Shown: piece after piece, positions 9,765 to 10,671 of the stretch
Position numbering within the stretch: the first letter of the stretch is position 1
How the letters are laid out: each line of letters opens with the position of its first letter
Source: Laburnicola sp. R22_1
Lineage: Eukaryota > Ascomycota > Dothideomycetes > Pleosporales > Didymosphaeriaceae
Assembly (NCBI GenBank): GCA_014281115.1
Contig: JACONQ010000015.1
Span: forward strand, 558,001-622,000
Length of the DNA: 64,000 nt
Direction of reading: 5' to 3'
Position numbers and translations under genes: made by a program
The notes under the pieces: model-generated
The model's input: the letters and a program-made list of their open reading frames with translations, nothing else
Told to the model about the DNA's origin: nothing
Databases searched by the model: none

Positions 9765-10365
9765 ATGATGTTAGATCAATCTCCCTATACAGCGCTTGCA
9801 ACAAAAGAGTCCACGGAGTCCAATGAGCCGCTTTTGGGTGAAACTGTCCCGCTTCGTGTAGAAAATCATACGAAGCTACAGAAGCAACTGCACTGGATCT
9901 TCCATTGTGTCAGTTCGATTGCTATACTCGGGCTATCGCTTGGTCTATACTTTGCACTCCGAACCAGTCTGACAAAATGTTGGGACATGTTCAATTATTA
10001 CTGTAAGACAGAAGCTCAAAAGGCTGGTTTATGAGACACTAACCCATTAGCTCCTGTGAACGAAGCCGTGGCTCCGCATTCATACATTCATAAACTGTTC
10101 AACGGCTCGCTATAGTACAAGAGTCCCTTTAAAGGTCCACCTACCCCGGAAGTCGAAGACGCATGGTACGATATCATGAAATGTAAGCGCAGCCTCAAAT
10201 CATCTGTGACATGCCCAAAGCTAATCCATACGTTCAGATGGCATGATAAGTGCCTCCAAAGAGGATATCGAAAAGGTACAGCACCTGGATTGGAGCGCTC
10301 AATTCTCACTGCTTTCATCTCATCGTGGCTTTTACGCCAAATCGCCAAGGAGACTCTTCATCTGA
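9765..10365 (+). pseudogene. UstYa-like (DUF3328) membrane protein gene with in-frame stops
   Basis: Three exons fit: 9765-10002, 10051-10182 and 10238 onward. The introns are 48 and 55 nt with GTAAGA/GTAAGC donors, CTAAC/CTAAT branch sites and TAG/CAG acceptors. Residues 1-43 are polar and 44-66 form one membrane helix, giving a type II topology with the C-terminus in the lumen. A YSPVNEAV motif then a GPPTPEVEDAW motif follow, both typical of the UstYa family. That family contains oxidases that cyclise ustiloxin-type peptides and other mycotoxin intermediates. Two stops interrupt it: TAG at 10113-10115 and TGA at 10363-10365. The family's usual HxxHC copper-binding motifs are absent, so catalytic activity is doubtful even if translated. 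The frame continues beyond the TGA into the tandem repeat listed next. It lies 0.7 kb from a RIP-mutated block, a plausible source of the stops. Confidence 0.75.
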
Positions 10366-10671
10366 CGACAGAGTATAGATTTCGATACCGACCCTATGCT
10401 CCAAGTTGGCGAAAAGTCAGACTCTTCGTACGCGGAGAACTATAAGCGCGCCAACTTCGAGACAGATCCCATGCTTCAGGTCGGGGGAAAGGCTTCTTCG
10501 TCGTACACGGAGAGCTACAAGAGAGAAAATTTCGAAATCGATCCGATGCTTCAAGTTGGGGAGAAGTCTGACTCTTCGTATGCGGAAATCTATAAGAGAG
10601 CCAATTTTGAAACGGACCCTATGCTTCAGGTGGGAGAGAAGTCGGATTCTTCATATGCCGAAAGCTACTAG
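10366..10671 (+). CDS. tandem-repeat peptide with Kex2-type sites, candidate dikaritin-like RiPP precursor (possible C-terminal part of the UstYa-like protein)
   Basis: This is an open frame of 101 codons, in phase with the UstYa-like reading frame and separated from it only by the TGA at 10363. From 10396 a 25-residue unit occurs four times (starts 10396, 10471, 10546, 10621; the last is cut at a TAG). Each unit has MLQVG, a Ser-rich linker and then a Y-x-E-x-Y block (YAENY, YTESY, YAEIY, YAESY). The first three are followed by KR, the Golgi Kex2 protease site. Ustiloxin-, phomopsin- and asperipin-type precursors share this pattern of aromatic cores and dibasic sites. Many differences between units are third-position changes (Val GTT/GTC/GTG, Tyr TAC/TAT), so this frame was probably selected. 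A stand-alone start at 10396 would have no signal peptide, so secretion would need the upstream membrane anchor. The product is not demonstrated. Confidence 0.55.
   Translation, partial: RQSIDFDTDPMLQVGEKSDSSYAENYKRANFETDPMLQVGGKASSSYTESYKRENFEIDPMLQVGEKSDSSYAEIYKRANFETDPMLQVGEKSDSSYAESY
10396..10668 (+). repeat. 75-bp coding tandem repeat, about 3.6 copies
   Basis: Units begin exactly 75 bp apart at 10396, 10471, 10546 and 10621. They are similar but not identical, and every change keeps the phase. The period is a multiple of three and no unit contains an internal stop in the coding phase before 10669. Confidence 0.95.

What the first reader, a model, noticed from the sequence alone, without database searches (positions are those of the whole stretch)
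9765..10671. UstYa-type protein reading straight into a Kex2-repeat RiPP-like peptide
Ustiloxin-, phomopsin- and asperipin-type fungal RiPPs need a UstYa-family (DUF3328) oxidase and a secreted precursor with repeated aromatic cores and Lys-Arg sites, normally encoded by separate neighbouring genes. Here both halves lie in one continuous phase across two canonical introns, separated only by the TGA at 10363. The UstYa part is a type II membrane protein, so a C-terminal repeat tail would face the Golgi lumen where Kex2 acts. A single polypeptide carrying both the anchor/enzyme fold and the precursor repeats would be a new arrangement. The alternative is a deletion that fused or juxtaposed two cluster genes.
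Basis: partly seen in the sequence, partly recalled or inferred. Interest (0 to 1): 0.88.

Follow-up and report, generated by a model that had tools for sequence, protein, structure and literature searches.

The report
Deletion chimera: UstYa stub, Kex2 repeats
In this fungal genome the front half of a peptide-modifying enzyme gene lies directly against the repeat exon of a normally separate secreted-peptide gene, most likely because a deletion joined two neighbours; one clean splice pattern could still make a membrane-anchored peptide precursor.

Summary
Both halves are real. 9765-10305 is the N-terminal half of a UstYa (DUF3328) gene; 10379-10668 holds four 25-residue repeats with three Lys-Arg sites. 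The UstYa half lacks both HxxHC motifs, so the enzyme is dead. Two intact relatives (273 aa) are full UstYa proteins without repeats. The repeat belongs to a conserved family of small proteins: 14 relatives of 62-111 aa, 13 with a signal-peptide-like leader by eye, none with a UstYa domain; no fused relative was found. Among the four units synonymous sites are near saturation while the protein hardly changes, so the array was long under purifying selection. Best reading: a recent deletion removed the enzyme's catalytic half and the peptide gene's signal exon. Only one splice model with strong donors (intron 10003-10378) leaves a fused frame open: 176 aa, UstYa anchor plus four repeats; whether it is used is unknown.

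The parts
9765..10002 (+). UstYa-type exon 1: cytosolic tail and hydrophobic signal anchor, intact, ends in phase 1
   Evidence: ORF and donor GTAAGA; with exon 2a 48% identity to P0016 over 99 aa
10003..10050 (+). canonical UstYa intron 1
   Evidence: GTAAGA...CTAAC...TTAG
10051..10182 (+). UstYa exon 2 remnant with an in-frame stop TAG at 10113-10115
   Evidence: PF11807 profile 72-110 matched just after the stop; P0015 and P0016 have a sense codon there
10183..10237 (+). canonical UstYa intron 2
   Evidence: GTAAGC...TTCAG
10238..10311 (+). UstYa exon 3 remnant; similarity to intact relatives ends at 10305-10311, before the first HxxHC motif
10306..10361 (+). inferred stretch holding the deletion junction (UstYa exon into KEP intron)
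   Evidence: inference: lies between the last UstYa match and the branch-like motif
   Evidence: 94 of 2998 YAG sites (3.1%) in 9001-64000, both strands, have a CTRAC at 8-25 nt
10379..10668 (+). KEP exon: four 25-residue units (last one cut after SY), three KR sites
10669..10671 (+). stop of the repeat frame
10748..10753 (+). AATAAA, possible polyadenylation signal
   Evidence: sequence

Best explanation
A two-gene locus, a UstYa-family oxidase followed by a Kex2-processed repeat protein (KEP) on the same strand, was collapsed by a recent deletion running from UstYa exon 3 into the KEP's own first intron. It removed the UstYa catalytic half (both HxxHC motifs) and the KEP signal-peptide exon, leaving UstYa exons 1-3 (exon 3 cut short) upstream of an intact KEP repeat exon. 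The canonical transcript stops at TAG 10113, giving a 100-residue anchored stub, so UstYa is lost and the repeats are stranded. A residual product is possible only by splicing UstYa exon 1 straight to the repeat exon. Shown: homology of both halves, two stops, missing half, intact repeats that were under selection, separateness in the relatives found. Inferred: former adjacency, a single deletion, its recency, the KEP intron, the outcome for expression.
For: Intact UstYa relatives P0015 and P0016 are 273 aa, full PF11807 (161 and 166.5 bits), each with two HxxHC motifs; P0016 gives no alignment to the repeats. The missing C-terminal half is not elsewhere at close identity: the best-scoring other place, C23, is 39% over 127 residues; short matches reach 52% over 25 residues. 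The repeats lie at one place in the genome. The 14 repeat relatives are 62-111 aa with no Pfam domain listed, and a search with a length band of about 111-353 aa gave only two 111-aa proteins already in that set. The UstYa remnant is little decayed: over 67 aligned residues 7 window-only changes, against 4 and 3 in the two relatives. No RIP-like index on the gene itself. In print, 22% of 7878 KEPs have a DUF3328 gene among the 15 closest genes, most often at the next position (PMC7329392: abstract and section 7 read). The same genome has a separate KEP-like ORF about 1.1 kb from the nearest UstYa match on C21.
Against: No sister-species locus could be read, so former adjacency and the single deletion are not shown. 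The KEP intron rests on a motif match. No transcript data. The parts that the open splice model keeps (exon 1, repeats) carry no stop or frameshift, which a long-dead locus would not favour.
Confidence: 0.66

Rival explanations
1. Functional exon-shuffled precursor: UstYa exon 1 is spliced directly to the repeat exon (intron 10003-10378), giving a 176-residue type II membrane KEP whose repeats face the secretory lumen; Kex2 would release units 2-4 while unit 1 stays on the anchor.
For: Of 887 combinations of one to three GT..YAG introns (40-400 nt, donors from 9991 on), this is the only one with GTRNG donors throughout that leaves the frame open from ATG 9765 into the repeats. Donor GTAAGA; CTGAC 13 nt before the TATAG end (such a motif stands before 3.1% of YAGs). 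Both stops and the truncated enzyme part fall inside that intron. Repeat units: pS 0.66-1.11 against pN 0.04-0.16 over the six pairs; Fisher p 1.6e-15 on two independent pairs with rounded sites.
Against: A 376-nt intron would have to outcompete the nearer acceptor at 10050, which has its own CTAAC. The selection seen among units may predate the fusion. No relative of this structure was found, whose length band covers 176 aa. 26 of the 887 combinations are open if weak donors are allowed, so an open frame as such is not rare.
Confidence: 0.18
2. The repeat gene keeps its own signal-peptide exon upstream of 9765, and the UstYa remnant lies inside its intron.
For: The acceptor-like 3' end at 10378 needs a 5' partner exon; a signal-like ORF exists at 9081-9170.
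Against: That ORF resembles no relative's leader by eye and has no phase-1 donor of the scanned type. It would need an intron of about 1.2 kb around another gene's exons. P0007, which has a leader, matches only the repeats in this genome.
Confidence: 0.05
3. Internal deletion in UstYa, with TGA 10363 its own natural stop, and a separate loss of the KEP 5' exon.
For: MAFFT laid GFYAKSPRRLFI against the extreme C terminus of the relatives.
Against: Only about 3 of 13 residues agree by eye; two events needed instead of one.
Confidence: 0.06
4. Assembly or consensus error in this genome.
For: Only one assembly is available and no reads.
Against: 63.9 Mb in 26 contigs; one stop and a clean loss of a whole half are not typical base errors (recalled).
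Confidence: 0.05

Closest known systems
UstYa/DUF3328 oxidases (PF11807) of dikaritin-type clusters
   Same: Signal anchor, SPVNEAV and SPFKGPP..E..AW stretches, two relatives at 80-82% in the conserved part
   Different: Catalytic half with both HxxHC motifs missing; in-frame stop; not a working oxidase
Kex2-processed repeat proteins, KEPs (PMC7329392: abstract, section 7, part of section 6; PMC6339444: passages)
   Same: Tandem near-identical units separated by KR; 14 close relatives, 13 of which have KR
   Different: No signal peptide of its own here; four searched strings of this repeat were found in no held paper
Borosin precursors (omphalotin core fused to its methyltransferase; passages in PMC6514808)
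   Same: Core peptide behind an enzyme-derived part in one gene
   Different: In borosins the enzyme is intact and acts on its own tail; here the enzyme part is broken
Fused burpitides of plants (passages in PMC11253845)
   Same: Fused versus split versions of one peptide pathway
   Different: Unrelated enzyme; the fused cyclase is functional there

Membership tests
UstYa/DUF3328 oxidase | Profile match over the curated cut-off | tested here: inconclusive
   64-aa piece 24.2 bits, cut-off 25; 100-aa N-terminal piece no match; the genome-wide six-frame search, which itself passes stops, gave 26.5
UstYa/DUF3328 oxidase | N-terminal membrane anchor | tested here: met
   Hydrophobic stretch in exon 1, best 12-residue mean hydropathy 2.17; no topology program was run
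UstYa/DUF3328 oxidase | Two HxxHC motifs (motif name recalled; the term occurs in PMC12048977, listing) | tested here: not met
   Present twice in P0015 and P0016, absent from the locus
KEP | Tandem repeats separated by Kex2 sites | tested here: met
   Four units, three KR sites
KEP | Signal peptide for entry into the secretory pathway | tested here: not met
   No leader in the repeat frame; 13 of 14 relatives have one by eye, in P0002, P0007 and P0012 behind an N-terminal extension; no signal-peptide program was run
KEP | Cleavage by Kex2 and peptide release | not testable with these tools
   Needs peptidomics
Dikaritin RiPP cluster | Intact UstYa gene next to the precursor | tested here: not met
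   Of the 31 matches in the genome only the broken one lies in the window
Dikaritin RiPP cluster | Tailoring genes such as tyrosinase nearby | tested here: not met
   20 window ORFs scanned with Pfam at 0.001, no tyrosinase or UstYa; short or multi-exon genes could be missed

The most novel reading that the evidence does not exclude
A new kind of fungal peptide precursor, made by exon shuffling: the signal anchor of a peptide-modifying enzyme now carries Kex2 repeats into the Golgi as a type II membrane protein. At least one published survey would have missed it, because it required a signal peptide and discarded membrane proteins (PMC6339444, passages).
Probability: 0.18. Interest if true: 0.7.

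Novelty: new member of a known kind. Interest (0 to 1): 0.36.

Why it matters
If the relic reading holds, it is a clear snapshot of a peptide locus collapsing and warns against reading adjacency as an enzyme-precursor fusion. It also brings out a peptide family whose roughly 23-residue core is almost invariant from Sordariomycetes to Leotiomycetes and Lecanoromycetes, more like a conserved signal than a variable toxin core (inference). If the anchored model is true, precursor surveys that drop membrane proteins miss a class.

Tried and rejected
Enzyme-plus-precursor fusion as a conserved architecture: not kept, since no fused relative was found (these searches need shared 5-residue words and a predicted gene, and have length bands). 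RIP as the cause of decay at the gene: index -0.64 for 9765-10365 and -0.05 for the repeats, against 1.27 to 1.49 for 1-9000. Translocation of the missing half: no close match in the genome. Hidden signal-peptide exon: ATG scan of 8900-10359, nothing convincing. Literature on a UstYa-precursor fusion: no listed title or abstract start pointed to one; the lists were capped at 20 rows, and of the papers I saw only an abstract, sections or passages of five. Repeat strings gave no paper. Weak Pfam hits of the repeats and relatives (Bud13, TSP9, DUF5511 and others) are below their cut-offs and ignored.

Full report
What is there. The window is C7:558001-622000 of a 63.9-Mb genome in 26 contigs. On the + strand, ATG 9765 opens an exon with a hydrophobic anchor, followed by two canonical introns (10003-10050, 10183-10237). 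From 10366 to 10668 a frame without stops holds four 25-residue units with three Lys-Arg sites.

The UstYa half. The piece between the two stops scores 24.2 bits on PF11807 (cut-off 25), profile 72-110; the piece before the first stop gives no Pfam match. A protein search with the former found two relatives, 2 of 2 candidates, both 273 aa and full-length UstYa, one named Apiospora sp.. P0016 matches exons 1-2a at 48% over 99 residues and exons 2b-3 at 80% over 45, then stops. Both HxxHC motifs of the relatives (residues 161 and 195) lie beyond that point. Over 67 aligned conserved residues, the stop position left out, the window has 7 private changes, P0015 4 and P0016 3, with 3 sites where all differ: somewhat faster, but little decayed. 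The missing half is nowhere else in the genome at close identity: best-scoring place 39%, short matches up to 52% over 25 residues. The genome holds at least 31 UstYa matches, counted exon by exon.

The repeat half. All 14 candidates of the first protein search are small proteins of 62-111 aa (the band allowed about 56-177) with two or three of the same units; 13 of 14 have at least one KR, P0003 none. The consensus leader is MxARxSxxxLxLxLVAxxxAAP. By eye 13 of 14 have a signal-like leader (P0008 does not), in P0002, P0007 and P0012 behind an N-terminal extension. They come from Sordariomycetes (Cytospora), Leotiomycetes (Clarireedia) and Lecanoromycetes (Letrouitia) and from xylarialean genera (names; placement recalled); P0013 has no name. 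A second search whose length band reached about 353 aa found only two 111-aa members of the same set at E <= 1, out of 1255 candidates, so no fused relative was seen; such a search needs shared 5-residue words and predicted genes. Between the four units pS is 0.66-1.11 and pN 0.04-0.16; on the independent pairs 1-3 and 2-4 there are 24 synonymous differences over 28.5 sites against 9 nonsynonymous over 109.5 (Fisher on rounded sites, p 1.6e-15).

The join. Of 2998 YAG sites in 9001-64000, 94 (3.1%) have such a motif at 8-25 nt. This suggests that the repeat exon keeps its own intron 3' end. P0002 lacks four residues here that P0001 has, which could reflect an annotated splice site or a deletion; weak. 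UstYa exon 1 ends in phase 1, which fits this acceptor.

What splicing could still do. Of 887 combinations of one to three GT..YAG introns, 26 leave an open frame into the repeats; with GTRNG donors throughout only one does, 10003-10378. It would give 176 residues: UstYa tail and anchor plus four units. Against it, the nearer acceptor at 10050 has its own CTAAC and should win; fungal introns are usually short (recalled).

Context. Left of 9000 the DNA is AT-rich with RIP-like indices 1.27-1.49; the gene itself is not. To the right lie mostly housekeeping genes: carnitine acyltransferase, a pof12-type F-box protein, SAE2, Mif2. No tyrosinase or second UstYa was seen in the 20 ORFs scanned. In the same genome, C21 carries UstYa matches on the - strand (316.6-317.2 kb) and, 1067 bases further, a separate + strand ORF of 116 aa with a signal-like start and 22-residue units, two KR. 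That is the usual two-gene arrangement. The scan for periodic KR repeats was run on 50 of the 52 loci held, most of them overlapping; besides this array it listed four other places (on C6, C20, C1 and C21), which by eye look low-complexity or chance except C21.

Judgement. A recent deletion chimera is the simplest account: dead enzyme, intact but stranded repeat exon. A working anchored precursor is possible and testable with one RNA-seq junction.

Noticed in passing
L035:2621-2971 (G000:C21:318237-318587): Separate KEP-like ORF, 116 aa, signal-peptide-like start, 22-residue units (two KR), 1067 bases from the nearest UstYa match on the opposite strand; a candidate ordinary UstYa/KEP pair.
   Followed up: partly
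10366-10668 and P0001-P0014: A KEP family with an almost invariant core (FETDPMLQVG.K..SSYA) in three classes of Ascomycota; no held paper contains the four strings searched.
   Followed up: partly
1-9000: AT-rich block (26-28% GC) with strong RIP-like dinucleotide indices; ends about 0.7 kb before the chimera.
   Followed up: partly
9081-9170: Short ORF with a signal-peptide-like start, by eye unlike the known leaders; probably chance.
   Followed up: no
G000, 31 places: Several other UstYa matches also carry stops inside the matched frame (introns or further pseudogenes, not separated).
   Followed up: no
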